The notes under the pieces: model-generated
The model's input: only the letters and a program-made list of their open reading frames with translations
Told to the model about the DNA's origin: nothing
The model's database searches: none
Translations under genes and position numbers: made by a program
NCBI RefSeq assembly: GCF_036322705.1
Contig: NZ_AP027270.1
Span: 1,675,501-1,739,500 of the forward strand
Length of the DNA: 64,000 nt
Direction: 5' to 3'
Source: Maricaulis maris
GTDB lineage: Bacteria > Pseudomonadota > Alphaproteobacteria > Caulobacterales > Maricaulaceae
Shown: piece after piece, positions 41,021-56,143 of the stretch
Numbering within the stretch: position 1 is the first letter of the stretch
How the letters are laid out: the number at the start of each line of letters is the position of its first letter

Positions 41021-41190
41021 TTCCTTCCCTGAAATCGAGATGCGTGCGCTCCGGAACTCCCGCGGCGTTTCCATGGCGTCGCGAAGGCTGGCCCGAACCC
41101 AGACCGCGACGTTCCGGCGCTGGAAAAGCGGGGACGCGTACCGTTTTTCACTTGTGCCCCTCAACTCGTGCGCACCGCGCGCTCACCCAT

Positions 41191-41320
41191 CCATGAACCG
41201 CTTGCCGGGATCCCGCCGTATCCGGGTCTTCAGGTCAAGGGCGGCGCCGCCGCCGCTTCGCGGTTTCACCCTTGAGCTAAAGACCCGGATACGGCCTGCT
41301 GGCTGACAAGCGATCCATGG
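41191..41320. repeat. 130-bp palindromic element, copy A
   Basis: Imperfect terminal repeats CCATGAACCGCTTG (41191-41204) and CAAGCGATCCATGG (41307-41320, 10 of 14 complementary). A perfect 15-bp stem CCGTATCCGGGTCTT (41216-41230) with AAGACCCGGATACGG (41280-41294) continues as TCAAGGG/CCCTTGA around a 27-base GC-rich loop. Shares its layout with copies at 47854-47982 and 55856-55985. Looks like a MITE-like or structured intergenic repeat. Confidence 0.85.
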
Positions 41321-41511
41321 ATCGCCCTGCGCCGGGTGGCGCGGCCGGGTCACATCCCTGTTCCAGCCGTGGTCGCCCGGACCGGCCTCGCCCATCCGGT
41401 CCCGACCCTTGTGTCGCGCGCCTTTCAGCGCGCCCACGGCTATTGCTCTCCGCACGCTGTTGCGCCGAAGGAGTGGGAGGGAGCGGGTAAGTTTTGAGTT
41501 CAGGCGTCGTT

Positions 41512-41561
41512 GTCATCCCGGCCGAATGGCCTGCGAAAGCAGGCCGCAGAGCCGAGGTGAC
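41512..41561. repeat. Nested GC-rich hairpin with GAAA tetraloop
   Basis: Inner stem GGCCTGC-GAAA-GCAGGCC (41528-41545) within outer pairs CGGC/GCCG and GTCA/TGAC. Same nested design as the hairpin at 48031-48071. Confidence 0.65.
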
Positions 41562-41652
41562 AGTTGAAACCAGACTTGGATGAACAGGGTGGTGGGACAC
41601 GTGATCAGGGGGCAATGCGAGAACGCGAACAAGGCGACCGGTCGGCCTCACC

Positions 41653-41874
41653 TCACCTCACCTCGACATACACGACCAGCGCAATCAAAAATCCACTCAG
41701 AACGGCAAAGGACACACAAACACAACACGCGACAATCCAGAAGTTTCTGATCATCAGATCATGATCGGTCGACGTGTGGGTGATCGCCGGAGTTTTTCGT
41801 TTGGTCCAGATGCTGCCAATAACCGATATGACCAATATGGACACCAGTGTGCCGAACCCTAAAAATGCAGCCAT
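41653..41874 (-). CDS. Small membrane protein of unknown function
   Basis: A 73-residue protein with two membrane segments (FLGFGTLVSILVISVIGSIW and FWIVACCVCVSFAVLSGFLI) separated by a polar loop. The ATG at 41874 lies 11 bases after the stop of the CinA-like gene, with GAAGAA upstream; a TTG five codons earlier is less likely. The stretch is visibly less GC-rich than its neighbours, so it may be a recent acquisition. I recognise no family. Confidence 0.5.
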   Translation of the reverse strand: MAAFLGFGTLVSILVISVIGSIWTKRKTPAITHTSTDHDLMIRNFWIVACCVCVSFAVLSGFLIALVVYVEVR

Positions 41875-41885
41875 ATTTCTTCGAC

Positions 41886-42668
41886 TCAATCCACCGGATC
41901 GATGCGCGGTGTGATCCCGACGGCTTCGACCATCGCGGCGATGCGATCGATCACCGTGTCTAGCTGGCCCTCGTCGGTGGCGCGGGCGACCAGATGGGTG
42001 CCGCGCTTGATCTCGCCGGCGGTGACTTCGAGGAAATAGGGATAGGAGCCGATCGATACGTCCGGGAAATCGTTGGCCAGGGCGCCGAGCGGTTCGGCAA
42101 TATCGCCTTCGCGCAGATTGTCGCCCTTGACCGAGCGGGATTGTGTGACGGCCCCACCCTCTAGCCGGTGATCGATGTCGTTGAGCATGCCGGCGACGAT
42201 GGACGGCACGCCGGCCAGGGTGAAGACATTGCCGGTCTGGAAGCCCGGCGCGCCACTGACCGGATTGACGATCAGGCTGGCCCCGTCAGGAATGCGCGCC
42301 ATGCGCTTGCGGCTTTCAGTCACCGGCGTCCCGGTCTTGGCGTACCAGTGCTCGATGATCTCGAGCGCGTCGGCGCGGACATCGATGCCGACCCCGAAGG
42401 CCTTGGCGACGGCGTCGGCTGTAATGTCGTCATGGGTCGGGCCGATCCCGCCGGTAGTGAAGACATAATCGCAGCGCGCCCGCAGCGTGTTCAGCGCGTC
42501 GACGATGATATCGGTCTCGTCCGGAACGACCCGGCATTCCACGACATTGATCCCCAGCGGAGCAAGAAAGCGGGCGATCTGGTTGAGATTCTTGTCCTGG
42601 GTCCGGCCCGACAGGACCTCGTCGCCGATCAGGAGCACTGCCGCCGTCACCCGTTTGCCTGTCGTCAT
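41886..42668 (-). CDS. CinA-type molybdopterin-binding domain protein
   Basis: A 260-residue protein with the MoCF/MoaB-like fold: LIGDEVLSGRTQDKN, VFTTGGIGPTHDDITADAVA, and NPVSGAPGFQTGNVFTLAGV are typical of the N-terminal domain of competence/damage-inducible protein CinA. The C-terminal amidohydrolase domain of CinA (deamidase) is absent, as usual in the alphaproteobacterial short form. The start at 42668 is chosen because the family begins just before VTAAVLLIGDE. Related proteins hydrolyse ADP-ribose or bind molybdopterin. Confidence 0.85.
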   Translation of the reverse strand: MTTGKRVTAAVLLIGDEVLSGRTQDKNLNQIARFLAPLGINVVECRVVPDETDIIVDALNTLRARCDYVFTTGGIGPTHDDITADAVAKAFGVGIDVRADALEIIEHWYAKTGTPVTESRKRMARIPDGASLIVNPVSGAPGFQTGNVFTLAGVPSIVAGMLNDIDHRLEGGAVTQSRSVKGDNLREGDIAEPLGALANDFPDVSIGSYPYFLEVTAGEIKRGTHLVARATDEGQLDTVIDRIAAMVEAVGITPRIDPVD

Positions 42669-42734
42669 GAGAATCGCCCTTAGCTGTGCCGTGTCTGACC
42701 GGATATATGTGGCGCCAGCAGGGAAGTCCAAGAC

Positions 42735-43442
42735 ATGAAATTCGCGACCGAGCTCGTCCGCGGACGGCTGATCAAACGCTACAAGCGCTTCTTCGCCGAT
42801 GTTGAGCTGGAGAGCGGCGAGACGGTGACGGCGCATTGCGCCAATACCGGCGCCATGACCGGGATCAAGACGCCGGGCCTCACCGTCTGGCTGTCGCGCT
42901 CGGACAATCCCAAGCGCAAGCTGAAATACACCTGGGAGCTGGTCGAGGCCGAGGGCACGATGATCGGCGCCCTGCCCAATCTCGCCAACGCGCTGGCCGA
43001 GGAGGCGGTTGAGGCCGGCGTGATCGCCGAGTTGGCCGGCTACGACAGCCTGCGCCGCGAGGTGAAATATGGGACGAATTCCCGCATCGATCTGTTGCTG
43101 GAGGGCGGCGAGCGGCCACCCTGCTGGGTCGAGGTGAAGAATGTCCACTGGCAGCGCGGACCCGGCATCGCCGAATTTCCCGACGGGGTGACCTCGCGCG
43201 GCGCCAAACACCTAGTCGAGCTGGCGGGCCAGGTCGCCGCCGGCGAGCGCGCGGTCCAGCTTTTCATTGTCCAGCGCAGCGATTGCGATGTCCTGCGGCC
43301 CGCCGCCGACATTGACCCGGTCTATGCGCAAACCCTGCGTGAGAGTGCGGGTGCCGGGGTTGAAGTCCTCGCCTATGCCTGCGACGTGTCTCCCGAGGCG
43401 GTGACGATTACCCGCCCGATGCGCGTGGAGCTGGGATCATGA
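42735..43442 (+). CDS. sfsA: Sugar fermentation stimulation protein homologue SfsA
   Basis: A 235-residue protein matching SfsA in length and motifs (RGRLIKRYKRFFADVELESG near the start; AHCANTGAMTG; YGTNSRIDLLLEG; WVEVKNVHW, where the Glu-x-Lys is nuclease-like; FPDGVTSRGAKHL). In E. coli it was linked to maltose gene regulation and binds DNA; its fold combines an OB-like domain with a nuclease-like domain. It overlaps the downstream thioesterase gene by four bases and is divergent from the CinA-like gene with a 66-base promoter gap. Confidence 0.93.
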   Translation: MKFATELVRGRLIKRYKRFFADVELESGETVTAHCANTGAMTGIKTPGLTVWLSRSDNPKRKLKYTWELVEAEGTMIGALPNLANALAEEAVEAGVIAELAGYDSLRREVKYGTNSRIDLLLEGGERPPCWVEVKNVHWQRGPGIAEFPDGVTSRGAKHLVELAGQVAAGERAVQLFIVQRSDCDVLRPAADIDPVYAQTLRESAGAGVEVLAYACDVSPEAVTITRPMRVELGS

Positions 43443-43909
43443 CCGACAATTGGAATGGCTGGGACCTGCCGGACGCCTATATCCATCGCATCACCGTCGA
43501 GGCGAAGGATATCGACAGTTTCGGCCACGCCAATAATGCCCGCTATCTGGAATGGGCCGACGAGGCCGCCTGGACGCACTGGTTCTCCAAGGGCTACGCG
43601 ATGGAAGCCTGCGCGGCCGATGATCGCGGCATCGCCATCATCCGCACCGAGGCCGACTATCTCGGCCATGTCCGCCTTGGCGACGAGATCGACTGCGCGG
43701 TCTGGATCAGCCAGTCCGATCGCCGTCTGCGGGCCGAGCGTCGCTACCAGTTTCGCCGCGTCACTGACGGCGCCACTGTATTCAGGGCCCTGACCAAGGT
43801 CGTCTGCTTCCAGCTCTCTACCGGCCGACCGGCCCGGATGACGCCAATCTTTTCAGACCACTACTCGGTCCTGCCCTCGGTAGCCGCGGCGCTTGTGACT
43901 GAAAGTTAA
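43439..43909 (+). CDS. Acyl-CoA thioesterase, 4HBT hot-dog family
   Basis: A 156-residue hot-dog protein. The signature DIDSFGHANNARYLEWADEA has the catalytic Asp and the His-x-x-N of 4-hydroxybenzoyl-CoA/YbgC-type thioesterases. It cleaves acyl-CoA to free acid and CoA. Its ATG overlaps the sfsA stop (ATGA), so the two are co-translated. Substrate unknown. Confidence 0.88.
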   Translation: MTDNWNGWDLPDAYIHRITVEAKDIDSFGHANNARYLEWADEAAWTHWFSKGYAMEACAADDRGIAIIRTEADYLGHVRLGDEIDCAVWISQSDRRLRAERRYQFRRVTDGATVFRALTKVVCFQLSTGRPARMTPIFSDHYSVLPSVAAALVTES

Positions 43910-43987
43910 CACGCCGCCGAGATTGTGCCGCTCGCCCTGCCCCTTATAGTCCGCACCAAATAAATCACCTCTTTGGGGGAGGCTCCC

Positions 43988-45682
43988 ATGAAATATCTCG
44001 TATCGGCCCTTGCCGGCTTGGCCCTTGCGGGCTGCAGCGCCGCGACTGACACCGACGCCACAGTGGCGCCGGGCGCCGCTGAAACCACATTCATGCCAGA
44101 TGTCAGCGCAACCAATATCGAAGCGCATATCCGCTTCCTCGCCTCGGACTATCTGGCCGGCCGCGATGCCGGTACGGATGGCTACGAGATCGCCGCCAAT
44201 TATGTCGCCGCGCAGATGCGCCTGCTCGGGCTTGAACCGGCTGGCGATGACGGCACCTATTTTGCCGCGGTGCCAATGCAGGAAGTGCTGGCAGACGCCG
44301 ACTACAACCAGCTCACCCTGGATGGCGAAACCTTCGCCCACGGCACCGAGGTGCTGGTCGGGACCAATCCGAGCGTTCTGGAATCCACCGTCACCGGCGA
44401 GCTTGTCTTTGTCGGCCATGGCGTGTCGGCGGCCAATCGCGGCCATGACGACTATGACGGCCTCGATGTCGAGGGCAAGATCGTGGTCGTGATGGGCGGC
44501 GTGCCCGAAGGCGTTTTCGAGGGCCTGTCGGAAGAGCGCGCGCACCACAATTCCGGCACCACCAAACGCAATGTCGCGGCCGACCACGGCGCAATCGGCA
44601 TGATCTCGATCACCGGCTGGACCAGCGAACAGCTGGCCGGCTTTGCCTCCGGCTTCGGCTCGCGCCCCACGGTGCGTCTGACCGCAGCCACCGGCCCATC
44701 GAGCTATGACACGGTCGCCGCCGCGGCCAATGTCACCGTGGAACTCGGCGCGCGCCTGTTTGAAGGCGCCGAAATGAGCCTGGAAGAAGTCCAGGCCGCG
44801 ATGTCGGCGGAGGAGCCGAGCTATCCGCGCTTTGCCCTGCCGCACACGGTGACGATCCGCCAGCGCACCCTGTCGGAGCCGTTCGAGGACCCCAATGTCG
44901 TCGGCATGATCCGTGGTACCGACCCGGAACTGGCGGATGAGATCGTGGTCCTGTCGGCCCACTTGGACCATATCGGTTCGGTCACTGACCACATGCGCTC
45001 GGGTGGCTCCTGCCGCTCGTCCGACGAGACGGATTCGGTCTGCAACGGCGCCGTCGACAACGCCTCCGGCGTGTCGATCATGCTGGAAACCGCGCGCACC
45101 TTCCTCGAACAGGGCGCCCCGCGCCGCTCCATCGTCTTCGTGGCGCTGACGGCCGAGGAAAAGGGCCTGCTGGGCTCCGAGCACTTCGCCCGCAATCCGA
45201 GCGTCCCGGCCGAGCAGATCGTCGCCAACGTCAATCTCGACATGCCGGTTATCGTCTATGATTTCGCCGACGTGATCGCCTTTGGCTCGAACCACTCCAA
45301 TCTTGGCCCGATTGCCACCCGCGCCGCGGCCCGGATGGACATCATGGTCAGTGAAGACCCGCTGCCCGAGCAGTCGCTCTTCGTGCGCTCAGATCACTAC
45401 AACTTCGTGCGTGAGGGCGTTCCCTCGCTCTTCCTGATGACCGGCTTCTCCTCGCCGGATCCGCGCTGGGACGAGGGCGAAGGCTTCATGGGCTTCCTCA
45501 ACACCCATTACCACCGCCAGACGGATCAGCTCGATGGCGAGCTGGAAGTCCTGTTCGAGCAGGGCGCGAAGTTTGCCAACATCAACTACCTGATCGCCCG
45601 CGAAATCGCCGACAGCGACGAGCGTCCGGCCTGGAATGATGACAGCTTCTTCGGCAACCTGTTCGGCCACGACGGCGAATAG
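43988..45682 (+). CDS. M28-family metallopeptidase lipoprotein with PA domain
   Basis: A 564-residue lipoprotein: MKYLVSALAGLALAGC ends in a lipobox (LAGC). The ATG at 43988 follows GGGGGAGG. A PA insertion (ELVFVGHGVSAANRGHDDYD...GKIVVVMGG) lies inside the peptidase domain. Zinc ligands are visible: H in LSAHLDHIG, D in GAVDNASGV, EE in ALTAEEKGLLGSE, D in NVNLDM and the last H in RSDHYNFVREG. It cleaves N-terminal residues of peptides at the outer membrane or in the periplasm. A strong terminator follows. Confidence 0.9.
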   Translation: MKYLVSALAGLALAGCSAATDTDATVAPGAAETTFMPDVSATNIEAHIRFLASDYLAGRDAGTDGYEIAANYVAAQMRLLGLEPAGDDGTYFAAVPMQEVLADADYNQLTLDGETFAHGTEVLVGTNPSVLESTVTGELVFVGHGVSAANRGHDDYDGLDVEGKIVVVMGGVPEGVFEGLSEERAHHNSGTTKRNVAADHGAIGMISITGWTSEQLAGFASGFGSRPTVRLTAATGPSSYDTVAAAANVTVELGARLFEGAEMSLEEVQAAMSAEEPSYPRFALPHTVTIRQRTLSEPFEDPNVVGMIRGTDPELADEIVVLSAHLDHIGSVTDHMRSGGSCRSSDETDSVCNGAVDNASGVSIMLETARTFLEQGAPRRSIVFVALTAEEKGLLGSEHFARNPSVPAEQIVANVNLDMPVIVYDFADVIAFGSNHSNLGPIATRAAARMDIMVSEDPLPEQSLFVRSDHYNFVREGVPSLFLMTGFSSPDPRWDEGEGFMGFLNTHYHRQTDQLDGELEVLFEQGAKFANINYLIAREIADSDERPAWNDDSFFGNLFGHDGE

Positions 45683-45710
45683 ATCCACCCGACTTCGCTG
45701 AGAAATGCAG

Positions 45711-45744
45711 GCGCGCGCCGTTCCAAACGGCGCGCGCTCTGTTT
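45711..45744 (+). terminator. Rho-independent terminator of the M28 lipoprotein gene
   Basis: A perfect 12-bp stem (GCGCGCGCCGTT, 45711-45722, with AACGGCGCGCGC, 45726-45737) around CCA, then TCTGTTT. Confidence 0.88.
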
Positions 45745-45771
45745 ATATAGGGTCGCCAGAGGAGACATGCC

Positions 45772-46611
45772 TTGACGACTGCCTACGAGACCGTGACCGA
45801 TACCGAGACCGCCAGCCCGCGCGATGGCCGCATCAAGCTGCACGGGCCGGAGGCCTTCGCCGGCATGCGCAAGGCCGGACGTCTGGCTGCGGAAATCCTC
45901 GACATGCTGGTCGAACATGCCCGGCCGGGCACGACCACGGAAGCGCTCGACAAGCTGGCGCGTGACTATGCCTTCTCCAATGGCTCGATGCCGGCGACGC
46001 TGTTCTATCGCGGCTACCGGCATTCGGTGTGCACCTCGATCAACCATGTCGTCTGTCACGGCATTCCCGGTCCGAAACCGCTGAAGAATGGCGACATCGT
46101 CAATATCGATGTCACCGTCGTGGTCGATGGCTGGCATGGCGATACCAGCCGCATGTACATGATCGGCGAGCCGCGCCGGAAGGCCGAACTGCTGGTCGAC
46201 ACGACCTATGAAGCCATGATGGCCGGCATCAATGCGATCAAGCCGGGCGTCACGCTCGGCACCATCGGCGCGATCATCCAGGAATACGCCGAGGAGCGTC
46301 GCTGCTCCATCGTTCGCGACTTCTGTGGCCATGGTCTCGGCCAGCTCTTCCATGACAGTCCCAACGTGCTGCATTTCGGCACCCGTGGTGAAGGCGTCGA
46401 GCTGAAGGAAGGCATGCTGTTCACGGTCGAACCGATGCTCAATCTCGGCCGGCCGGATGTGAAGGTGCTGGCCGATGGCTGGACCGCCGTCACCCGCGAC
46501 AAGTCGCTGTCGGCGCAGTTCGAGCATTCCGTCGGTGTCACGGCGGACGGGGTGGAGATTTTCACGTCCTCGCCCAAGGGCCTCGACAAGCCGCCCTATT
46601 CCCTGCCCTGA
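45772..46611 (+). CDS. map: Methionine aminopeptidase, type I
   Basis: A 279-residue enzyme that removes the initiator Met from nascent proteins. Metal ligands are visible in NIDVTVVVDGWHGDTSRM, HGLGQLFH, TVEPML and QFEHSVGV. The start is TTG at 45772: AGGAG (45760-45764) sits seven bases upstream and no ATG lies near in frame. Overlapping it is a three-codon frame ATG-CCT-TGA (45767-45775). It precedes radC by three bases, so the two are co-transcribed. Confidence 0.95.
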   Translation: MTTAYETVTDTETASPRDGRIKLHGPEAFAGMRKAGRLAAEILDMLVEHARPGTTTEALDKLARDYAFSNGSMPATLFYRGYRHSVCTSINHVVCHGIPGPKPLKNGDIVNIDVTVVVDGWHGDTSRMYMIGEPRRKAELLVDTTYEAMMAGINAIKPGVTLGTIGAIIQEYAEERRCSIVRDFCGHGLGQLFHDSPNVLHFGTRGEGVELKEGMLFTVEPMLNLGRPDVKVLADGWTAVTRDKSLSAQFEHSVGVTADGVEIFTSSPKGLDKPPYSLP

Positions 46612-46614
46612 GCC

Positions 46615-47295
46615 ATGAACGACCTGGCCTCGCATACAGGTCATCGGGACCGGCTGCGTGAAAAACTAACCTCAGCGGGTGGTCTGGCACTTCACGATTA
46701 TGAATTGCTCGAGCTTTACCTGTTCCGCTGCATTCCGCGCCGCGACGTCAAACCCATCGCCAAGGACCTGATCGCCCGTTTCGGGGATCTGGGTGGCGTC
46801 GCCTCCGCCAGCGTGGTCCAGCTCACCACGGTTCGCGGCGTCTCGGAAAAGACAGCCGCCGAGCTCAAGCTGATCAAGGCGCTGTCGGAACGCCTCGCCC
46901 GCGAGCAGGCGATCGGGCGCCCCGTCATCACCTCCTGGTCCGCCCTGGTCGCCTATTGCCGGACCGCCATGCAGCACGCCACGACCGAACAATTCCGCGT
47001 CCTCTTCCTCGATCGCAAGAACAAGCTGATTGCCGACGAGGTGCTCGGTGAAGGCACGATCGACCACGCCCCGGTCTATCCGCGCGAAGTGGTCAAGGCC
47101 GCCCTCGCCCACGAGGCCTCCGCCATCATCCTGGTGCACAACCACCCGTCCGGCGACGCCACGCCCAGCCAGGCCGATATCGAGATGACCCGCACGCTGA
47201 TGGAGATCTGCAAACCGTTTGAAATCGCGGTCCATGATCACCTGGTGATCGGGCGCGAGAATACGGCGAGTTTCAAGACTTTGGGGTTGATGTGA
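46615..47295 (+). CDS. radC: RadC-family JAMM-domain protein
   Basis: A 226-residue protein. The helix-hairpin-helix part (LHDYELLELYLFRCIPRRDV; VRGVSEKTAAELKLIKAL) is followed by the JAMM metal motif HNHPSGDATPSQAD. Despite the name, a repair role has not been confirmed. Immediately downstream of map, and its stop codon overlaps the GTG of the next gene. Confidence 0.95.
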   Translation: MNDLASHTGHRDRLREKLTSAGGLALHDYELLELYLFRCIPRRDVKPIAKDLIARFGDLGGVASASVVQLTTVRGVSEKTAAELKLIKALSERLAREQAIGRPVITSWSALVAYCRTAMQHATTEQFRVLFLDRKNKLIADEVLGEGTIDHAPVYPREVVKAALAHEASAIILVHNHPSGDATPSQADIEMTRTLMEICKPFEIAVHDHLVIGRENTASFKTLGLM

Positions 47296-47831
47296 TCATT
47301 ACGCCATTCCGCACACTTTGCCTGGCACTGGCGGTGAGTGCCGTTGCCAACTCGGCTCAAGCCGAGTCTGACGGGCCGGGCTGGAACTTTTGGGACCAGG
47401 GCACTGGCGCCGGCTCACTGGCCTTTGGCTGGAGCGAGAGCGAGGCGGTCTTCGTGATGCGATGCGAGCCAGCAAGCTACATCGTATCGATAAGTGGTGA
47501 AGTGGCATGGGACCAGCCATACCCGCCTCACCCTGACGGGCGAGGTGGCTATGATGTGTCCGCCTTTCCTGTCTTGCTCGACTTCACACTCGGGCTTCCG
47601 CCCCATCAATTTAGAACCGAGGTCGAGGGTTGGCCGAATGACGTAACCGGCAGTGGCTTGACCGTCGACTTCACCATTCCCGTGAACGACCTGTCGCTGA
47701 TGACCATAGGCGGCGCGTCGTCGGATCGAATATTGCGCCATGCCGCAAACGGCATCGAAACGCGTATTTCCTTCAGCGACGAGGAATTTGAGCTTCTGGA
47801 AAGTTTCTGGCGCAACTGCCGCGCCGAATAG
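47292..47831 (+). CDS. Exported protein of unknown function
   Basis: A 179-residue protein that starts with GTG inside the radC stop (ATGTGA), so it is translationally coupled. A signal peptide (TLCLALAVSAVANSAQAES) precedes a mature domain with alternating strand-like segments (LAFGWSESEAVFVMRCEPAS; SGLTVDFTIPVNDL) and a helical end with a cysteine near the C-terminus (SFWRNCRAE). The DNA is slightly less GC-rich than radC. I do not recognise the family. Confidence 0.65.
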   Translation: MIITPFRTLCLALAVSAVANSAQAESDGPGWNFWDQGTGAGSLAFGWSESEAVFVMRCEPASYIVSISGEVAWDQPYPPHPDGRGGYDVSAFPVLLDFTLGLPPHQFRTEVEGWPNDVTGSGLTVDFTIPVNDLSLMTIGGASSDRILRHAANGIETRISFSDEEFELLESFWRNCRAE

Positions 47832-47853
47832 GAAGCGCACGACGCGGAACCGT

Positions 47854-47982
47854 CCATAAATCGCTTGTCAGCCAGCAGGCCGTATCCATTTCTTCCGGTC
47901 AAGGGCCCGAAGGGCCGCGCAGCGGGCATGCCCCTTGACCGGAAGAAATGGATACGGCGCACTCTCGGCAAGCGAACAATGG
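47854..47982. repeat. 129-bp palindromic element, copy B
   Basis: Opposite orientation to copy A. Ends CCATAAATCGCTTG (47854-47867) and CAAGCGAACAATGG (47969-47982, 11 of 14 complementary). Its central stem is a perfect 26-bp inverted repeat (47880-47905 with 47932-47957), starting CCGTATCCATTTCTTCC and ending TCAAGGG, around a 26-base loop containing a small GGCCC/GGGCC hairpin. Confidence 0.88.
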
Positions 47983-48203
47983 TGGGGAGAGGCACAAAAT
48001 GCCCTCCCCCTCACCAGGCAAGTACATTTCCCCCGGACGCAGCCCGGCGAAAGCCGGGCGAAGGTCCGGGGCCAACCGAACCCGACACCAGCCTCTGCCC
48101 CAGTCCTGCTGCGATAAGCCCAACGTCGATCCCGGATCGCGCTCTGCGCGTCCGGGAAAAATTGTGCGGCGCGCGTTGGGGAAAGACTCCCGGAACGCCG
48201 ACC
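47983..48203. repeat. Intergenic stretch with nested GC-rich hairpins
   Basis: Contains a perfect double hairpin (outer CCCCGGAC, 48031-48038, with GTCCGGGG, 48064-48071; inner GCCCGGC-GAAA-GCCGGGC, 48042-48059) and a second copy with outer CCCGGA/TCCGGG at 48131-48156. With element copy B these fill the 372-base gap between convergent genes. No gene seen. Confidence 0.7.
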
Positions 48204-48596
48204 CTACCCCTCCGGCTCGATCGGCTGCCAGAGCTCGATCTTCGTCCCGTCGGGATCCATCACCCAGGCAAAACGCCCATAGCTGAAATCCTGCGGCTCG
48301 CCTTCCAGCGGCACGTTCTTCTCGGTGAGACGCGCCAGCATCGAATCCATGTCGTCGATCATGAGATTGATCATGAAGGGCTTGTCGGACGGCTTGAAGT
48401 AATCGGTTCCGGTCTTGAAACCGGAGAAGATGGTCCGGGCGCTCTTCGGGAAGGCCTTGCCGGCCTCGGCATGCAGGAAATCAGCGCCTCCATAATCATT
48501 GAGCGCGAGCCCCAGCTTGTCAGCATACCAGGCCATCAAGGCCGATGGGTCCGGGCTGTGAAAGAAGATACCCCCGACACCAATGATTTTCGCCAT
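48204..48596 (-). CDS. VOC/glyoxalase-superfamily protein
   Basis: A 130-residue protein with the repeated beta-alpha-beta-beta-beta units of the vicinal oxygen chelate fold (GGIFFHSPDPSALMAWYADKLG; WVMDPDGTKIELWQP). The last motif carries the Glu used for metal binding. The start at 48596 is chosen because the fold begins there. Members include glyoxalase I, dioxygenases and resistance proteins; the reaction cannot be told. It lies 43 bases downstream of the zinc-ribbon gene. Confidence 0.85.
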   Translation of the reverse strand: MAKIIGVGGIFFHSPDPSALMAWYADKLGLALNDYGGADFLHAEAGKAFPKSARTIFSGFKTGTDYFKPSDKPFMINLMIDDMDSMLARLTEKNVPLEGEPQDFSYGRFAWVMDPDGTKIELWQPIEPEG

Positions 48597-48639
48597 GCTC
48601 GCCTCCCAGGTCAGCGGCAAGGATAACCGGAACAGGCGG

Positions 48640-49074
48640 TCAGGCCAGCAGTTTGTCGATCTTCCTGAGGACCGCCGTGCGGGCCTGGGCGCCGAGGAAG
48701 TGTGAGGGGATGCGCAGCAGATAGCGCCACCAGACGCTGGCCTTGCCGATCGCATTGCGATCCGCGCCGGCAGCAATGAAGCGTCGGATCTCGGCCATCA
48801 TCTCGGCGTCCTTGGCCCACAGGACCTGGCCCTTGTACTCGATGCGGAACCAGGCCTGGCCCGGCCAGTCGAGCGTGTGCGCGGCGACATGGTGGCAGGC
48901 AGTACAGCGCACCTGACCGTCCTGGTTGTTCGGCGACACCGTGCCGTCAGCCTTCCTGACCGTGACCGGCAGTGCCTTGTTGTGACGGGTGGTAAAGACC
49001 GCGCGTCCCTGACAGCGCGGGCAGGCAATATCCATCGGGGCGCGCAACAACGCGTGTTCGTAGATCTCGGTCAT
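48640..49074 (-). CDS. Zinc-ribbon protein of unknown function
   Basis: A 144-residue protein. Two CxxC pairs (CPRC near residue 18, CTAC near residue 57) predict a zinc ribbon. The rest contains aromatic-rich helices (WFRIEYKGQVLWAKDAEMMA; ASVWWRYLLRIPSHFLGAQA). I recognise no named family. It is followed by the VOC gene in the same direction. Confidence 0.65.
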   Translation of the reverse strand: MTEIYEHALLRAPMDIACPRCQGRAVFTTRHNKALPVTVRKADGTVSPNNQDGQVRCTACHHVAAHTLDWPGQAWFRIEYKGQVLWAKDAEMMAEIRRFIAAGADRNAIGKASVWWRYLLRIPSHFLGAQARTAVLRKIDKLLA

Positions 49075-49177
49075 GCCCCAGCTTAGCGAGAGCCCTGAGC
49101 GACGCCCACATGAAAAGCGGGCTGGACGCAGCGCGCCACTCGCCTAGCCTCTGGGCCAAGCCAGAAGGAGCCTATCC

Positions 49178-50404
49178 ATGATGCAAGCCCCCGCGAACTA
49201 CTTCACCCATCTGGAATGTTCCGAGACCGGCGAGCGCTATGAGGCCGATCAGCCGCACAACCTGTCCAAGGCCGGCAAGCCACTGCTCGCCCGCTATGAT
49301 CTCGAGAAGATGAAGGCCGAGACTGATCGCGGCGCGATCTGGGCCCGCGGCGGCGGTTTCTGGAAATGGCGCGAGCTGCTGCCGGTCGCCAGCGATGACG
49401 ATGTCTGCGCCTTGGGTGAACTCGACACCCCGCTGATCGACGTTCCGGCAACGGCCAAGGCCTCCGGCGCGACCGGCAAGGTCTGGGTCAAGGATGAGGG
49501 CCGCCTGCCGACCGGCAGTTTCAAGGCCCGCGGCCTCGCCCTCGCGGTCGCCATGGCGCACAGTTATGGCATCACCCGCATGGCGATGCCGACCAATGGC
49601 AATGCCGGCGCGGCGCTGTCGGCCTATTGCTCGCGTATGGGCATGGAGAGTTTCTGCTTCGCTCCCGAGGACACGCCGGAAGCCAATCTGCGCGAGATGG
49701 CGCTGCAGGGCGCGAAAGTCTTCAAGGTCAATGGCTATATCCACCATTGCGGCGCGCTGGTCGGTGCCGGCAAGGAGGCGATGGGCTGGTTCGACACCTC
49801 CACCCTCAAGGAGCCCTACCGGATCGAAGGCAAGAAGACGATGGGCCTGGAACTCGCCGCCCAGCTCGGCTGGAAACTGCCCGACGCGATCTTCTACCCG
49901 ACCGGCGGCGGTACCGGCCTCATCGGCATGTGGAAGGCCTTCGACGAGATGGAAAAGCTCGGCTGGATCGGTTCCGAGCGCCCGAAAATGTTCGCCGTCC
50001 AGGCCGAAGGCTGTGCCCCCATCGTCAAGGCCTACGAAGACGGCGCTCGCCACGCCGAGGAATGGCTCGACGCCAAGACCGCCGCCATGGGCATCCGCGT
50101 CCCCAAGGCGATCGGTGACTTCCTGATCCTCGACGCGGTCCGGGAAAGCGGTGGGGCAGCGCTTGCCGTCTCGGAAGAGGCGATCGAAACAGCGCGAACA
50201 CGCTGTGCGCGGGAGGACGGACTGCTGCTCTGCCCGGAAGGCGCGGCAACCCTCGCGGCGATGGAAAAGGCGATGGGCGACGGCCTGCTGGCGCGCGACG
50301 CCGAATCCATGCTGTTCAATTGCGGATCGGGGCTGAAATACGCGATGCCGGATGGGGCGAAGGCGCTGGATCGGCATGGGGATGTGGATTGGGGTAGTTT
50401 GTGA
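49178..50404 (+). CDS. thrC: Threonine synthase
   Basis: A 408-residue PLP enzyme of the fold-type II family. The PLP lysine is K116 in TGSFKARG, the phosphate-binding glycine loop is FYPTGGGTGLIG, and PTNGNAGAALSAYCSR follows. The N-terminal FTHLECSETGERY resembles the family's zinc-ribbon-like start, here lacking some cysteines. It converts O-phosphohomoserine to threonine. AAGGAG (49165-49170) sits upstream. A threonine synthase-like paralogue is possible because the protein is shorter than the E. coli enzyme, but it fits the plant/archaeal-type class. Confidence 0.82.
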   Translation: MMQAPANYFTHLECSETGERYEADQPHNLSKAGKPLLARYDLEKMKAETDRGAIWARGGGFWKWRELLPVASDDDVCALGELDTPLIDVPATAKASGATGKVWVKDEGRLPTGSFKARGLALAVAMAHSYGITRMAMPTNGNAGAALSAYCSRMGMESFCFAPEDTPEANLREMALQGAKVFKVNGYIHHCGALVGAGKEAMGWFDTSTLKEPYRIEGKKTMGLELAAQLGWKLPDAIFYPTGGGTGLIGMWKAFDEMEKLGWIGSERPKMFAVQAEGCAPIVKAYEDGARHAEEWLDAKTAAMGIRVPKAIGDFLILDAVRESGGAALAVSEEAIETARTRCAREDGLLLCPEGAATLAAMEKAMGDGLLARDAESMLFNCGSGLKYAMPDGAKALDRHGDVDWGSL

Positions 50405-50410
50405 GCCATA

Positions 50411-50437
50411 GGGACATGTACCTCTGGTACGTGTCCC
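50411..50437 (-). repeat. REP palindrome, left outer copy
   Basis: A 27-base imperfect palindrome beginning GGGACATGTACC and ending GGTACGTGTCCC with a TCT centre. It is the reverse complement of the REP at 50460-50486 except in the centre, so the two form a REP pair 22 bases apart. Confidence 0.85.
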
Positions 50438-50459
50438 GGTCAGGGAACTACATTTTTCC

Positions 50460-50486
50460 GGGACACGTACCGCAGGTACATGTCCC
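50460..50486 (+). repeat. REP palindrome, left inner copy
   Basis: A 27-base palindrome beginning GGGACACGTACC and ending GGTACATGTCCC, ten bases before the transposase stop. Identical to the copy at 51105-51131 on the other side of the gene. Confidence 0.9.
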
Positions 50487-50495
50487 TAGGCTGTG

Positions 50496-51026
50496 TCATG
50501 CATCCGGATCAACCGCGTGGAGATATTCGTCCCAGTCGGCAACTCGATCCTGCATGGGGGCAACGCGAACGACGCCATCATCCTTTCCCGCCAGATGCGC
50601 ATGCACGCTCGACCAACGCCAATCTTCGGTGCGTGCCACCAGACCGGCACGAACCGGGTTGAACTCGATATAGCGGCAAGCGGCAAAGAGGCGCGCCTCG
50701 TCCATGAACGAGGATTTGAAGCGGCCCTGCCACAGCAAGCCGGCACCTCCTGCACCCCGATTGTAGTACTGCGTGTAAAGGCGATGCGTTCGGCCGACTG
50801 CCCGCGACAGGCTTTGCCCGTCCTCTGGTACCAGGACCAGATGAACATGATTGGGCATCAGGCAGTAGGCCCAGCACTGGACGTTCTCGCTCCGGCAGGA
50901 TTCGGACAACAGGACGAGATAGTGGGCGTAGTCGTCTTCGGCGAAAAAGACCTGCTGCCGACGGTTGCCCCGCTGGGTGACGTGATGCGGGGCGCCGGGG
51001 TGTATGATGCGGGCGGATCTGGGCAT
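50496..51026 (-). CDS. REP-associated tyrosine transposase (RAYT, IS200-like)
   Basis: A 176-residue Y1-family HUH enzyme. The family start MPRSARIIHPGAPHHVTQRG fixes the ATG at 51026. The HUH motif is H60-V-H62 (MPNHVHLV) and the catalytic Tyr is Y119 (CRYIEFNPVRAGLV). RAYTs are domesticated single-strand transposases that cut and paste REP hairpins. It is bordered by REP palindromes on both sides, so its cognate repeats are identified. All key residues are intact. Confidence 0.94.
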   Translation of the reverse strand: MPRSARIIHPGAPHHVTQRGNRRQQVFFAEDDYAHYLVLLSESCRSENVQCWAYCLMPNHVHLVLVPEDGQSLSRAVGRTHRLYTQYYNRGAGGAGLLWQGRFKSSFMDEARLFAACRYIEFNPVRAGLVARTEDWRWSSVHAHLAGKDDGVVRVAPMQDRVADWDEYLHAVDPDA

Positions 51027-51104
51027 GAAGGTGATAGGATCAAGTGGCGCACGCGTTATACGAGCAGTTTTCATTATATACAATCTAAAGAATACCCCAT
51101 TTCC

Positions 51105-51131
51105 GGGACACGTACCGCAGGTACATGTCCC
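51105..51131 (+). repeat. REP palindrome, right copy
   Basis: Identical to 50460-50486 over 27 bases, with similar flanks (CATTTCC before, T after). It lies 79 bases upstream of the transposase start and about 80 bases before purB. Confidence 0.9.
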
Positions 51132-51210
51132 TCGGCGCCGCTCCCCTTGACCTTTCCGCCCCCGTGTCGCATCCCCCGCGCTTCTGTCACGCATCGCGCG
51201 GAGCCCGCTC

Positions 51211-52509
<1,299 letters not shown>

Positions 52510-52962
52510 CTATCGCGAAGTCCAGCGCAGGGCGGCAACCAGCAGGATGATATGCCAGACGGCATCGATCCCCAGATAGACGGTCCCCAGGAGCATCTCG
52601 CCCAGCACACCTGGGCCCATGACCGTATAACTTCGAAACGTGTCTGATGCCGCATCGCGCAAGGCATTGCCGCTGTCCGAGCGCTCCATGAGGAGTACCT
52701 GCAGGCCAATATCCAGGAATCCGGCGACCGTCGTCGCCAAGAATGACAGAACGATCCAGGCCGATACCGCACCACGTTTCTTGCGGATCAGGAACCAAAG
52801 GATGAGGATGTCAATTGCCGCGCCAGCTACCATGACAGGCATGAAGCCCGAACCGCTCAATCCGGCTATCGGCACAAAACCCAGCACGTCTGCCTGGCCG
52901 CCGGCATGCATGAACGCGATACCGGCCCATTTCAGGCCCAACAACAGGATAACTGTGATCAT
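52510..52962 (-). CDS. Four-helix membrane protein of unknown function
   Basis: A 150-residue protein with four hydrophobic segments (VILLLGLKWAGIAFMHA; FMPVMVAGAAIDILILWFLI; WIVLSFLATTVAGFLDIGLQ; AVWHIILLVAAL). The ATG at 52962 with GGGGGAAG upstream is preferred to a Met six codons earlier. It is convergent with purB with no gap at all. Family not recognised. Confidence 0.6.
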   Translation of the reverse strand: MITVILLLGLKWAGIAFMHAGGQADVLGFVPIAGLSGSGFMPVMVAGAAIDILILWFLIRKKRGAVSAWIVLSFLATTVAGFLDIGLQVLLMERSDSGNALRDAASDTFRSYTVMGPGVLGEMLLGTVYLGIDAVWHIILLVAALRWTSR

Positions 52963-53097
52963 CGCTTCCCCCACCAGCAAGCGTTGGCAACCAACCTCCA
53001 GCAGCCTCCCCGAACCTGCAAGTCAAATTACGATGACACGGACCGAAGACGATCCGTCAGCTTCCCCGGCTGGCGATGAAGGGCTACCGTCCCCCCC

Positions 53098-53658
53098 ATG
53101 GCCAAGACTCACCCCCATATCGACGACCGCATCCGCAGCTTCATCGAGGCCCAGAAGATGTTTTTCGTCGCCACCGCCCCGTCCGGTGACGGCGGTCATG
53201 TGAACCTGTCGCCCAAGGGCTATGACAGTTTCCGCATCCTGGGACCCAATGAGGTCGCCTATCTGGATCTGGGTGGATCCGGGATCGAGACGCTGGCGCA
53301 TGTGCGCCAGAATGGCCGCATCACCTTCATGTTCTGCGCCTTCGAGGGCACGCCGAACATTCTGCGGCTTTACGGCAGGGCGGAGGCGGTGTCGTTTGAC
53401 GAGCCCGGCTTTGCCGACAAGCTGGCCCTCTTTCCGGACTTCCCCAAGGCGCGCAGCATCTTCACTGCGAAAATCGACCGCATCCAGGACAGTTGTGGCT
53501 GGGGTGTGCCGTTCTACGAGCATGTCGGCGAGCGCGACCAGCTGGTCCGCGTCAATGCACACCGCAGCGACGAAGACTGGGCGGCGCGGCGCTATGAGAG
53601 CAATGCCAGCTCGATCGACGGCCTGCCCGGCCTCGCCAAACCCGACGCCGCGGAATAA
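53098..53658 (+). CDS. Pyridoxamine 5'-phosphate oxidase-family flavin-binding protein
   Basis: A 186-residue split-barrel protein (FFVATAPSGDGGHVNLSPKG; AYLDLGGSGIETLAHVRQNG; ITFMFCAFEGTPNILRLYG). This family binds FMN or F420 and carries out oxidation or reduction of small molecules. The Ser-Pro-Lys-Gly near residue 40 is typical of the PPOX-like group of unknown substrate. It precedes a thioredoxin-like gene by 33 bases. Confidence 0.82.
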   Translation: MAKTHPHIDDRIRSFIEAQKMFFVATAPSGDGGHVNLSPKGYDSFRILGPNEVAYLDLGGSGIETLAHVRQNGRITFMFCAFEGTPNILRLYGRAEAVSFDEPGFADKLALFPDFPKARSIFTAKIDRIQDSCGWGVPFYEHVGERDQLVRVNAHRSDEDWAARRYESNASSIDGLPGLAKPDAAE

Positions 53659-53691
53659 GACTTCGCCCCCAGCTTCAGCAAGCGAGACCCC

Positions 53692-54153
53692 ATGCGTACC
53701 AGCCTCATCCTTGTCGGCCTGCTCGCCGTCTTCATGGCCCCCAATTTCTTCCGCGCCAGCTGGGACGGCGCCGCGCAGGCCGAGATCACCGAAGCCGCGG
53801 CCGAGCCGCGCCTGGTCGCGGCCATGTTCCGCTCCTCCTGGTGCTCCGCCTGCCGCGTCATCGAGCCGCGTATCGAGGATGTCCGCGGCGAATATGAGGA
53901 CGCCGCCATCGACTGGGTGAAGTTCGACTTCACCCTGGGCCGCCGTGACAGCCTGCGCGAGATGGCCGAGGCCGAGGGGCTGGCTTCGATCTATAACGAA
54001 GCGGCCGGATCGACCGGCTTCATGCTGCTGATCGACCGCGACACCAACCAGGTCTTCGAGATGATCACAATGGATTATGGCCGCGACCAGATCCGCGAGG
54101 CGCTCGACCGCTGGCTCATCGTGGTCGAGCGGCTCGAGGCGGAGGGGGTTTAA
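53692..54153 (+). CDS. Exported thioredoxin-like protein
   Basis: A 153-residue protein with an N-terminal membrane/signal segment (MRTSLILVGLLAVFMAPNFF) and a thioredoxin fold. The active site is WCSAC in MFRSSWCSACRVIEP, with the later GFMLLIDRDTNQVFEM. Likely a periplasmic thiol-disulphide exchanger; the SA dipeptide between the cysteines differs from classic thioredoxin (GP) and DsbE (PP). The strong terminator at 54196-54224 ends it. Confidence 0.8.
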   Translation: MRTSLILVGLLAVFMAPNFFRASWDGAAQAEITEAAAEPRLVAAMFRSSWCSACRVIEPRIEDVRGEYEDAAIDWVKFDFTLGRRDSLREMAEAEGLASIYNEAAGSTGFMLLIDRDTNQVFEMITMDYGRDQIREALDRWLIVVERLEAEGV

Positions 54154-54195
54154 GACCCCTCACCCGGCCCGGCCGGCGGCCAAGGAATGCCCAGA

Positions 54196-54224
54196 AAAAA
54201 GCCCCGGTTGGACCGGGGCTTTTT
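54196..54224. terminator. Bidirectional rho-independent terminator
   Basis: A 13-bp stem (AAAAAGCCCCGGT, 54196-54208, with ACCGGGGCTTTTT, 54212-54224) around TGG, between the convergent thioredoxin-like and ATPase zeta genes. Confidence 0.93.
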
Positions 54225-54247
54225 CCTGTCAGCTCTGAGCTGCCGGA

Positions 54248-54571
54248 TCAGCTGCCGGAGCGGATCTGCTCGAGCGCCGTTTCCATCAGATCATCCATCT
54301 GCTTGCGCAGGAGGTGGTCGGACAACTCGACATTCTTGGCGTCGAGATCGGCGCGCACCTTGCGGAACACATCGTCGTCACCGGCTTCCTCGAAATCGGC
54401 GATGACGACCGACTTGGCATAGGCATCGGCCTCTGCGCCATCAATACCCATCAGCCCGGCAGCCCACAGGCCGAGAAGCTTGTTGCGGCGGGCCGTCGCC
54501 TTGAACTCGTTCTCCTGCTCGTGGGCGAACTTGTTCTCAAAGCCTTTTTCGCGATCATTGATGCCCGACAT
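54248..54571 (-). CDS. F1FO-ATPase inhibitor subunit zeta (DUF1476)
   Basis: A 107-residue helical protein. The N-terminus NDREKGFENKFAHEQENEF and the following ARRNKLLGLWAAGLMG are the DUF1476/zeta signature. In Paracoccus the zeta subunit enters the F1 rotor and blocks ATP hydrolysis. GAGGAGAG precedes the ATG at 54571. In many alphaproteobacteria this gene sits next to purC, as here, where it is divergent from purC with a 265-base gap. Confidence 0.9.
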   Translation of the reverse strand: MSGINDREKGFENKFAHEQENEFKATARRNKLLGLWAAGLMGIDGAEADAYAKSVVIADFEEAGDDDVFRKVRADLDAKNVELSDHLLRKQMDDLMETALEQIRSGS

Positions 54572-54836
54572 GGGTCTCTCCTCGAGGACGGTTGTGTTGC
54601 TAGTTGAGTAGCTTGGCGGCGGCGCCAAATCAATCTCCGTGCTGAGGCCCGGCTGCGACAGGACGGGCCCGCGGAGCCAACCCGCCCCGCACCGCGACAA
54701 GTGATTGCGCTGCAAGGCTGCGAAGGATATTTTCGCCCCTCGTTACGCGGTCCGGTCTTCGATTCGGGCCGCGTCATGCTTTTTCAAGGCCGGGCGTCCG
54801 CTGGGGGCTTCCGGGCCCGTCGCTGGAGCGTCGCTC

Positions 54837-55613
54837 ATGTCCCGTCGCAAGATGATTTACGAAGGCAAGGCCAAGATCCTCTATGAGGGCCCGGAGCCGG
54901 GAACGCTCGTCCAGTATTTCAAGGACGATGCGACCGCCTTCAACAATCAGAAACATGCCACGCTGGAAGGCAAGGGTGTGCTCAACAACCGGATATCCGA
55001 GCACATCATGCTCGGGCTCGGCCGGATCGGCATCCCGACCCACTTCATCAAGCGCCTGAACATGCGCGAACAGCTGGTCCGCCAGGTCGAGATCATCCCG
55101 CTGGAAGTGGTCTGCCGCAATGTTGCCGCCGGCTCGATCAGCACCCGCCTGGGCGTGCCCGAGGGCGAGCAATTGCCGCGCTCCATCATCGAATTCTACT
55201 ACAAGAAGGACGAGCTCGGCGATCCGATGATCTCCGAGGAACACATCACCGCCTTCAACTGGGCGACCCACCAGGAGATCGACGACATGATGGCGATGAC
55301 CCTGCGGGTCAACGATTTCCTGAGCGGTCTTTTCACCGGTGCCGGCATCCGCCTGGTGGACTTCAAGCTGGAATTCGGCCGCCACTATGAGGGCGACATG
55401 GTCCGCACCGTGCTGGCCGACGAGATCAGCCCGGACAGCTGCCGCCTGTGGGATCTCGAGACCAATGAGAAGATGGACAAGGACCGCTTCCGTCGCGACA
55501 TGGGCAATGTCACCGAGGCCTATGCCGAGGTTGCCCGCCGTCTCGGCATCATGAAGGAAAGCGGCCAAGGCGCCGCCGGTGGCGATGTCGGTAAAAGCGA
55601 CGCGCCGAAGTAG
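54837..55613 (+). CDS. purC: SAICAR synthetase (phosphoribosylaminoimidazole-succinocarboxamide synthase)
   Basis: A 258-residue ATP-grasp-like enzyme. The start [18 protein letters not shown] is the family N-terminus. [20 protein letters not shown] and [12 protein letters not shown] are typical, the latter for metal and nucleotide binding. It joins CAIR and aspartate. GGAG at 54825-54828 precedes the ATG. The next pur gene, purS, begins 530 bases later because repeat elements lie between. Confidence 0.97.
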
Positions 55614-55855
55614 GTCCTCACCCAGACAAGGCTAGGCGGGGAAGTAACATTCCGCGCGACCGCATCGTTTTGTCCCGGAAGCGCGCAGCGCCATCTTTTC
55701 CCGGAGGCGGGCAGCGCCATCCGGGACCAACGGGAGACTCATCATTTGCCGGATGGTCGGGTAGGTCCCGGCTCTTCACCCCGCTTTTGCGGGGCTCCGG
55801 CCGGGAAAAATGGTGAGGGTGAATTGAGTAGAACGTGCGCGCCAGCGCCAATCAG
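55614..55855. repeat. Intergenic CCCGG-type hairpin repeats
   Basis: A tandem direct repeat of 22 bases (55674-55695 and 55700-55721, 20 of 22 identical; core GCAGCGCCATC) lies within outer arms GTCCCGGA (55672-55679) and TCCGGGAC (55720-55727). A second nested hairpin has inner CCCCGC-TTTT-GCGGGG (55779-55794) inside TCCCGG/CCGGGA (about 55766-55806). With element copy C these make up the purC-purS gap. Confidence 0.7.
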
Positions 55856-55985
55856 CCATTCATGTATTGCCCGAACTTCGCCTCAGCCAGTTTTCGCGCT
55901 CAAGGGTGAAACCGCGAAGCGGCGGCTCTGCCGCCCTTGACCTCGAAAACTGGCTGGGGCCCGCGGGCTGACAAGACCCCAATGC
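55856..55985. repeat. 130-bp palindromic element, copy C
   Basis: Between purC and purS. Arms 55880-55906 and 55934-55960 pair at 24 of 27 positions plus one G-U; the stem core is CAGCCAGTTTTCG, different from copies A and B. The right flank GGGCTGACAAG matches copy A in the same orientation, yet the 27-base loop (55907-55933, TGAAACCGCGAAGCGGCGGC...) matches the reverse complement of copy A's loop at 24 of 27 positions. Confidence 0.83.
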
Positions 55986-56143
55986 CGTGTTCACAGCGGG
56001 CCCGGATTTCTGACGACGTCTGGCCCGAAATCACATCTCGCATCGCCACCCTGCTGAATCCGCACGTCGCGTCAATTGCGCGCGGGGCGACTCCGCTTTA
56101 TGCAGGGGCGAAATGTCGTGACCAGCACAAGCGAGTCGAGCCC

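What the first reader, a model, noticed from the sequence alone, without database searches (positions are those of the whole stretch)
41191..55985. Family of 129-130 bp palindromic elements in three intergenic gaps
Copies at 41191-41320, 47854-47982 (inverted) and 55856-55985 have nearly the same length, similar ends (CCAT...GCTTG / CAAGC...ATGG), a shared flank (GGCTGACAAG) and a long central stem capped by TCAAGGG/CCCTTGA around a loop of 26-27 bases. They contain no gene. This looks like a MITE-like mobile element or a structured transcribed repeat, and I know no name for it.
Basis: seen in the sequence. Interest (0 to 1): 0.75.

Follow-up and report, generated by a model that had tools for sequence, protein, structure and literature searches.

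The report
Invertible hairpin repeats of Maricaulis
A marine bacterium carries dozens of copies of a 170-letter DNA hairpin whose two arms stay mirror images while their sequence changes and whose tip is found either way round, which gives a natural test of how paired stems stay paired in evolution.

Summary
The three copies belong to a dispersed intergenic family: 24 full-length places plus 12 weaker or deleted ones in the 3.14 Mb genome, and matches in 17 of 19 Maricaulis genomes. Outside Maricaulis, 23 further genomes of the order ring (34 of 299 in all).

Inner-stem pairs are 98% Watson-Crick (2944 of 3002) although the sequence varies. The few mismatches show no wobble excess: 16 G.T, 14 A.C, 28 other. 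A small tRNA control gives 11 G.U, 0 A.C. Changes between orthologous copies are often double, and the apical module differs in orientation in 4 of 30 orthologue groups. This fits DNA-level arm copying and spacer inversion (replication template switching) better than a selected RNA fold.

Best reading: an old MITE-like element, now mostly inherited in place. Its mobilising enzyme was not found; IS200/RAYT genes are absent from five of the seven copy-rich genomes (present in the own genome and G003). Transposition itself is not shown.

The parts
41170..41339 (+).
   Evidence: R1 match 41169-41342, 173.9 bits
41215..41295 (+). Copy 1, inner palindrome (variable stem plus apical module)
   Evidence: R2 match G000:1716715-1716795, 90.4 bits
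41234..41276 (+). Copy 1, apical module GTCAAGGG...CCCTTGAG, GTCAAGG on the + strand
   Evidence: sequence; alignment A3
47835..48002 (-).
   Evidence: R1 match 47832-48004, 156.3 bits
47879..47958 (-). Copy 2, inner palindrome
   Evidence: self-match of the inner part on the other strand
47898..47939 (+). Copy 2, apical module GTCAAGGG...CCCTTGAC (GTCAAGG on both arms; mini-hairpin first on the + strand, i.e. module inverted relative to the element)
   Evidence: 1723398-1723439; sequence
55836..56005 (+). Copy 3, whole unit with diverged ends, between purC and purS; an orthologue is present in G015, G016 and G018, its inner stem is deleted in G006, and it is absent in G014 and G011; not determined in several other genomes
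   Evidence: R1 match 55835-56007, 120.9 bits
55880..55960 (+). Copy 3, inner palindrome
   Evidence: R2 match G000:1731380-1731460, 81.6 bits
55899..55941 (-). Copy 3, apical module, inverted relative to copy 1

Best explanation
The copies are an old, MITE-like, non-autonomous DNA hairpin element that spread in Maricaulis and is now mostly inherited in place. Shown: a dispersed intergenic family; a conserved unit of about 170 bp; a polar apical module (GTCAAGG on the side of the first mini-hairpin) that recurs in other genera of the order; near-perfect inner stems of changing sequence without wobble excess; double changes between orthologues; the apical module found in both orientations, including at orthologous sites. 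Inferred: the arms are kept identical and the tip is flipped by template switching at the replication fork, where the nascent strand copies the opposite arm. The module and the sub-terminal boxes are kept because an unidentified trans-acting recombinase or transposase must recognise them when the element moves.
For: In 158 copies the inner stem has 2944 of 3002 Watson-Crick pairs, with 16 G.T, 14 A.C and 28 other mismatches. tRNA stems from the same fetched sequence (13 tRNAs, 280 pairs) have 11 G.U, 0 A.C and 0 other non-WC pairs. Several outer-arm positions of the same elements pair far worse although their sequence is conserved. In 61 orthologue pairs (30 groups, not independent) 58 stem positions changed on both sides, 55 of them WC to WC, against 39 one-sided changes (12 G.T, 11 A.C, 16 other); with one pair per group 27 against 18. 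Per group there are 21 transversions and 11 transitions among WC-to-WC changes; PMC8604942 (passages read) says that published bacterial template-switch data favoured transversions. Among copies with C.C or G.G flanking bases 61 C.C are called R and 58 G.G are called F, with no G.G called R and no C.C called F (3 G.G uncalled). Opposite orientation occurs in 7 of 60 orthologue pairs, from 4 of 30 groups, 6 of the 7 with a double change too. GTCAAGG is on the mini-hairpin side in 158 of 160. The C.G state next to TCAAGGG occurs in 0 of 163 against 41 G.C. All 28 elements in about 640 kb of two genomes are intergenic by a home-made gene caller. One 98% identical pair at two places in G015 defines a shared unit against unrelated flanks.
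Against: No target-site duplication or clean filled/empty pair was found; absences look as much like deletions as like empty sites. Best paralogues within a genome are 86% alike at the median, so there is little recent movement. No partner enzyme was found: 49 neighbouring proteins of 29 distant loci show no transposase among the 25 of 94 families listed, and Y1_Tnp is absent from five of seven copy-rich genomes. Template switching is inferred from pattern, not observed. In one group with opposite orientation (L216/L168) flanks are 95-99% alike but the spacers differ far beyond inversion, which suggests exchange with another copy. Stem variation is uneven: the three foot pairs are WC in 156-157 of 158 and hardly vary, and positions 4 and 10 carry much of the change. 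Copies were filtered for at least 13-14 of 21 complementary arm positions, which raises the WC percentage. The tRNA control is small, and ARAGORN itself looks for paired stems.
Confidence: 0.5

Rival explanations
1. The perfect stem is kept by selection on a DNA hairpin or cruciform that a structure-specific recombinase recognises (attC-like or IS200-end-like logic); point mutations are compensated by selection, not by template switching.
For: Equal G.T and A.C fits a DNA structure formed by both strands; the apical module is polar and conserved; a GNA triloop sits on one strand in 122 of 151 copies against 6 on the other.
Against: It does not by itself explain opposite spacer orientation at orthologous sites or the roughly even orientations. 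Double changes outnumber surviving one-sided changes, with many C-G to G-C swaps, which is hard by two independent hits.
Confidence: 0.25
2. A structured RNA: the repeat is transcribed (small RNA, 3' UTR stabiliser or attenuator) and selected for its fold.
For: Strong covariation (18 of 37 pairs with changes on both sides, 0 of 500 shuffles as high); nested hairpins with conserved internal loops.
Against: No wobble excess in the inner stem, unlike tRNA. The 28 copies examined lie in convergent, tandem and divergent gaps. Copy number runs from no match in G004 to 116 rows (about 58 places if each copy rings on both strands) in G018. No Rfam family reached its gathering score at the copies in the window.
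Confidence: 0.15
3. A REPIN/REP family moved by a RAYT (Y1 transposase); one such gene lies in the window at 50496-51212.
For: A Y1_Tnp gene is in the window and a second in the genome; hairpin repeats moved by RAYTs are a known kind (PMC3116915, passages read).
Against: Both RAYT genes of this genome are flanked by their own, different repeats. Y1_Tnp rings in 5 of 19 Maricaulis genomes (own, G003, G005, G009, G011) and not in G015, G018, G006, G014 or G016, which are rich in copies.
Confidence: 0.03

Closest known systems
Bacterial MITE-like small repeats (ERIC, YPAL/RU-2, NEMIS, RUP; review PMC2229807, passages read)
   Same: Non-coding, 100-200 bp, dispersed in intergenic gaps, long stem-loop, no own enzyme. 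YPAL too has internal rather than terminal inverted repeats and no TA ends.
   Different: No TA ends in the consensus and no clean target duplication seen; the inner stem is near perfect with changing sequence, and the apical module is found in both orientations; the module recurs in other genera with different arms.
CIR repeats of Caulobacter and Brucella (Chen and Shapiro 2003, recalled; described in PMC2229807, passages read)
   Same: Alphaproteobacterial intergenic repeats of about 110 bp with long stem-loops.
   Different: CIRs carry a conserved GANTC in a terminal loop and have two arms joined by a linker; here GANTC occurs in 13 of 163 cores and the hairpins are nested.
REPINs/REPs with RAYT transposases (PMC3116915, passages read)
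   Same: Dispersed hairpin-forming, intergenic, non-autonomous repeats.
   Different: No association with RAYT genes seen; REPINs keep two inverted REP ends, here the conserved parts are the apical module and the sub-terminal boxes.
Repetitive hairpin-forming elements of mitochondrial genomes, including double-hairpin elements (PMC2800124, passages read)
   Same: Repeated hairpins with some complementary substitutions and no known adaptive function.
   Different: Organellar; no shared apical module and no inversion shown in the passages read.
Template-switch footprints at inverted repeats (PMC8794818 and PMC8604942, passages read)
   Same: Arm homogenisation plus spacer inversion, the pattern seen here.
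   Different: Those are single events in rRNA, microRNA or yeast genes; here one repeat family gives about 160 copies and 30 orthologue groups.

Membership tests
MITE | short, non-coding, multi-copy, dispersed between genes | tested here: met
   24 full places in the own genome; 28 of 28 elements in two genome regions intergenic by a home-made gene caller; among 29 distant loci 2 overlap a called frame
MITE | terminal inverted repeats | tested here: inconclusive
   GCGC mini-hairpins at both ends and partly paired outer arms, but no long perfect terminal repeat
MITE | target-site duplication and filled/empty sites | tested here: inconclusive
   flanks between species too diverged; absences look like deletions in several cases
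MITE | related autonomous element with a transposase | tested here: inconclusive
   none in the 25 of 94 families listed for 49 neighbouring proteins; one distant genome has an IS110-family element that carries a similar hairpin, homology uncertain
REPIN / REP-RAYT | RAYT gene flanked by the same repeat | tested here: not met
   both RAYT genes of the genome have other flanking repeats; Y1_Tnp missing from five of seven copy-rich genomes; flanks of the RAYT genes of other genomes not looked at
CIR repeats | conserved GANTC in a loop | tested here: not met
   13 of 163 cores contain GANTC anywhere
Structured RNA family | match to a curated family | tested here: not met
   only a tRNA reaches a gathering threshold in the window
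Structured RNA family | stem variation that tolerates G.U over A.C | tested here: not met
   16 G.T against 14 A.C in the inner stem; tRNA control 11 against 0
Structured RNA family | a transcript | not testable with these tools
   no RNA-seq at hand
Integron attC site | R boxes (GTTRRRY/RYYYAAC, recalled) at the ends | tested here: not met
   no such ends in the consensus, by eye
Integron attC site | an integron integrase in the genome | not tested
   not searched for

The most novel reading that the evidence does not exclude
An order-wide class of mobile DNA hairpins recognised as single-stranded or cruciform DNA through a polar, invertible apical module by an unknown recombinase. Its arms are continually rewritten by template switching, so that compensatory changes and loop inversions occur together in nature.
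Probability: 0.15. Interest if true: 0.85.

Novelty: new variant of a known kind. Interest (0 to 1): 0.6.

Why it matters
How paired stems stay paired while their sequence changes is an open question. The template-switch proposal predicts compensatory changes together with inverted loops; PMC8794818 (passages read) calls that the strongest possible support and found such cases extremely rare. This family offers many natural replicates: about 160 copies and 30 orthologue groups, 4 of them with opposite module orientation, in free-living marine bacteria. It also warns that strong covariation in a bacterial repeat need not mean a functional RNA: mismatch types (G.U against A.C) should be checked. 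If the apical module is a recognition site, it points to an unidentified mobilising enzyme in the order.

Tried and rejected
RAYT/IS200 mobilisation: rejected. CIR membership: rejected. A known RNA family: none in the window at gathering scores. Autonomous partner among neighbours of distant copies: none seen (the table shows 25 of 94 families). Target-site duplications: not resolvable. Replication-terminus function: 14 of 24 full copies of the own genome lie in 1.70-2.11 Mb (counted), but the collinear stretch of G015 is not at the GC-skew switch, so I did not build on it. Spread of the centre motif over the class by exact pattern: 13 of 385 genomes including the own one, the other 12 with one place each, against 5 genomes for the backwards control, so near chance. 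The apical model R2 rings in 8 of 385 including the own genome; G560 has 8 matches, the best 80.6 bits. Plasmids and phages: only weak partial matches at E above 0.01. Nothing on a Maricaulis repeat was seen in the listings (open papers only; one search listed 10 of 259).

Papers: passages read in PMC2229807, PMC8794818, PMC8604942, PMC2800124 and PMC3116915; all others seen only as search listings. Chen and Shapiro 2003 is recalled and was seen only as cited in PMC2229807.

Rows dropped: alignment A3 has 46 rows; its first list had 47. I left out L303, whose orientation was tied and which, as the script oriented it, would have CTCAAGG on that side. I turned three rows (L268, L300, L302) by hand so that the spacers line up. 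So the 46 of 46 GTCAAGG in A3 depends partly on my choice of orientation; the 158 of 160 does not. For one search I left out one of 50 references, a frame overlapping the element in L262.
Full report
OBSERVATION. Each fits a long nested hairpin that folds far better than shuffled sequence as single-stranded DNA. BLAST with each copy finds the family over the 3,142,398-base genome. A covariance model built from 23 BLAST-found copies (alignment A1; model R1) gives 62 rows in the own genome at E up to 0.1. Because the element is palindromic, 24 full-length places ring on both strands; the remaining 14 rows are 12 weaker, partial or internally deleted places. Several deleted copies keep both outer ends and lack most of the inner stem. 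On A1, 96.9% of 851 cells pair, 18 of 37 pairs have changes on both sides, and none of 500 shuffles reaches the observed scores; slid partners pair in 30-45% of cells.

ANATOMY. The conserved unit is about 170 bp (MAFFT profile of 163 copies). From left to right: a mini-hairpin GCGC..GGCGC; a linker ACACCCC; the box CCATNNATNNCTTG-CCGAGAG; an inner stem of about 20 bp; the apical module; the other stem arm; GCTGGCTGA-CAAGNNATNNATGG; a linker; and a second mini-hairpin GCGCGNGGCGC. The apical module reads GTCAAGGG, a G+C mini-hairpin, CGCNNNGCG, a tail and CCCTTGA(G/C). Oriented by the mini-hairpin alone, GTCAAGG is on that side in 158 of 160 Maricaulis copies (3 of 163 left out because orientation could not be called; the 2 misses have a substitution inside the motif). 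It is invariant in the 46 rows of the wider alignment A3, but there I turned three rows by hand and left out one tied row (L303) that would have broken it as the script oriented it. The NNN triloop is GNA on one strand in 122 of 151 copies and on the other strand in 6.

DISTRIBUTION. R1 matches 17 of 19 Maricaulis genomes, with 116 rows in G018, 94 in G015, 70 in G006, 59 in G016, 57 in the own genome, 46 in G014 and 42 in G003; G004 and the 65%-complete G012 have none. Rows count both strands and only a limited number of candidates was scored, so they are not copy numbers. An exact pattern from one end hit 38 stretches of the named genome collection, all titled Maricaulis. Contig lengths identify G018 as M. 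maris DSM 4734; that G015 is M. maris MCS10 is recalled from its length only. Over the order 34 of 299 genomes ring, 11 of them Maricaulis and 23 in eight other genera. I looked at 31 matches from 16 of those 23 genomes, six genera: they share the apical module, have other arms, and mostly have other outer parts, though a few keep CTTGCCGAG; three (L304, L295 and a second match in L287) are poorly paired as I parsed them. Over the class, 8 of 385 genomes including the own one ring with the apical model R2. One of these, G660, has five equal-scoring places; the four fetched are inside an IS110-family element. I cannot say whether that hairpin is homologous.

DNA OR RNA. I collected 163 distinct copies from 16 Maricaulis genomes (158 by an earlier de-duplication). 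These are the listed, mostly best-scoring matches plus those in fetched stretches, not all copies, and I required at least 13-14 of 21 complementary arm positions. In the 19 inner pairs of 158 copies, 2944 of 3002 are Watson-Crick; 16 are G.T, 14 A.C and 28 other, one of them with an N. If a fold of one transcribed strand were selected, G.U should far exceed A.C, as it does in 13 tRNAs from the same sequence (280 pairs: 11 G.U, 0 A.C, 0 other; a small control, and ARAGORN itself looks for paired stems). If either strand were transcribed, G.T plus A.C should exceed the rest; it is 30 against 28. Variation is uneven: the three foot pairs hardly vary, and positions 4 and 10 carry much of it. In the outer arms of the same elements several positions mismatch freely, for instance 52 A.C against 5 G.T at one position of 155 copies, though at another position G.T exceeds A.C 15 to 2. 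So the near-perfection is special to the inner stem.

CHANGE BETWEEN ORTHOLOGUES. Flank comparison gives 61 two-sided orthologue pairs in 30 groups. Over 1159 stem positions, 1062 are unchanged, 58 changed on both sides (55 WC to WC) and 39 on one side (12 G.T, 11 A.C, 16 other); mean identity of the aligned flanks is 87.7%. With one pair per group the numbers are 525, 27 and 18. Counted per group, WC-to-WC changes are 21 transversions and 11 transitions, 13 of them C-G to G-C; such swaps do not go through G.U. The module lies in both orientations: 61 R and 58 F among copies whose flanking bases are C.C or G.G (3 G.G copies could not be called), and no called copy breaks the link, so the flanking base turns with the spacer; the G.C copies are 26 R and 15 F. 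At orthologous sites 7 of 60 pairs, from 4 of 30 groups, have opposite orientation, and 6 of the 7 also show a double change in the arms. The cleanest is L226 (G016) against L003, L186 and L240. Against a simple story: the L216/L168 pair has flanks 95-99% alike but spacers that differ more than an inversion explains, and the L235/L256 arms differ at five pairs, so that replacement is possible. The state with no GTCAAGG next to the stem (C.G) is missing in 163 copies while its mirror G.C occurs 41 times (binomial), so something requires that motif.

MOBILITY. The copies are old: the best paralogue in the same genome is 86% alike at the median over the 141-base core, the best orthologue 91% (75 copies that have one), the best non-orthologue in another genome 89%. 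A 98% pair in G015 (948471 and 3360572) shares the unit from about 40 bases before the CCAT box to about 20 after the ATGG box, with unrelated sequence outside. Of 14 elements in 304 kb of the own genome, 4 have a G015 element at the matching place; 3 of the 14 could not be anchored. Absent sites are too diverged to show a target duplication, and one keeps a stump of the element. So spreading is inferred from copy number and differing sites; transposition is not shown.

SURROUNDINGS. In about 640 kb of two genomes all 28 elements lie between genes: 10 convergent, 12 tandem, 5 divergent and one unresolved, by a home-made codon-based gene caller. Among 29 distant loci 2 elements overlap a called frame. 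Copy 3 lies between purC and purS. This does not look like a cis-regulator of one pathway.

MECHANISM. The pattern of near-perfect arms, double changes without wobble, many transversions and spacer inversion is what template switching between inverted-repeat arms is described to leave (PMC8604942 and PMC8794818, passages read). I take that as the likeliest cause of the stem's perfection. The conserved, polar module and the sub-terminal boxes need another cause, most simply recognition by an enzyme that moves or moved the element. That enzyme is unknown; Y1/RAYT is excluded as the current partner in five copy-rich genomes, though the own genome and G003 have such genes.

Noticed in passing
window 50496-51212 (-): A Y1_Tnp (RAYT-like) gene flanked on both sides by its own palindromic repeat GGGACACGTACCGCAGGTACATGTCCC; a second RAYT gene at genome 2588057 is flanked by another repeat.
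   Followed up: partly
window about 55700-55830 and other intergenic gaps of G000/G015: Other repeat families (CCCGGATCGCGC..GTCCGGGAAAAATGG and GGGACAGACACAATT types) lie beside several hairpin elements, so these gaps look like mosaics of repeats.
   Followed up: no
G000:C1 1.70-2.11 Mb: 14 of 24 full-length copies fall in 13% of the chromosome; the collinear stretch of G015 is also rich.
   Followed up: partly
L316, L323, L327, L329 (genome G660): An IS110-family element carries a long hairpin with an apical TCAAGGA..TCCTTGA beside its transposase; one copy, L327, has longer matching arms than the others.
   Followed up: partly
L267, L270 (other genera of the order) and L314 (G560): A second hairpin, GGGCTGTAAGCC..GGCTTACAGCCC or similar, stands next to the apical-module hairpin.
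   Followed up: no
window 40930-41017 (+): A tRNA gene ends about 170 bases before copy 1.
   Followed up: no
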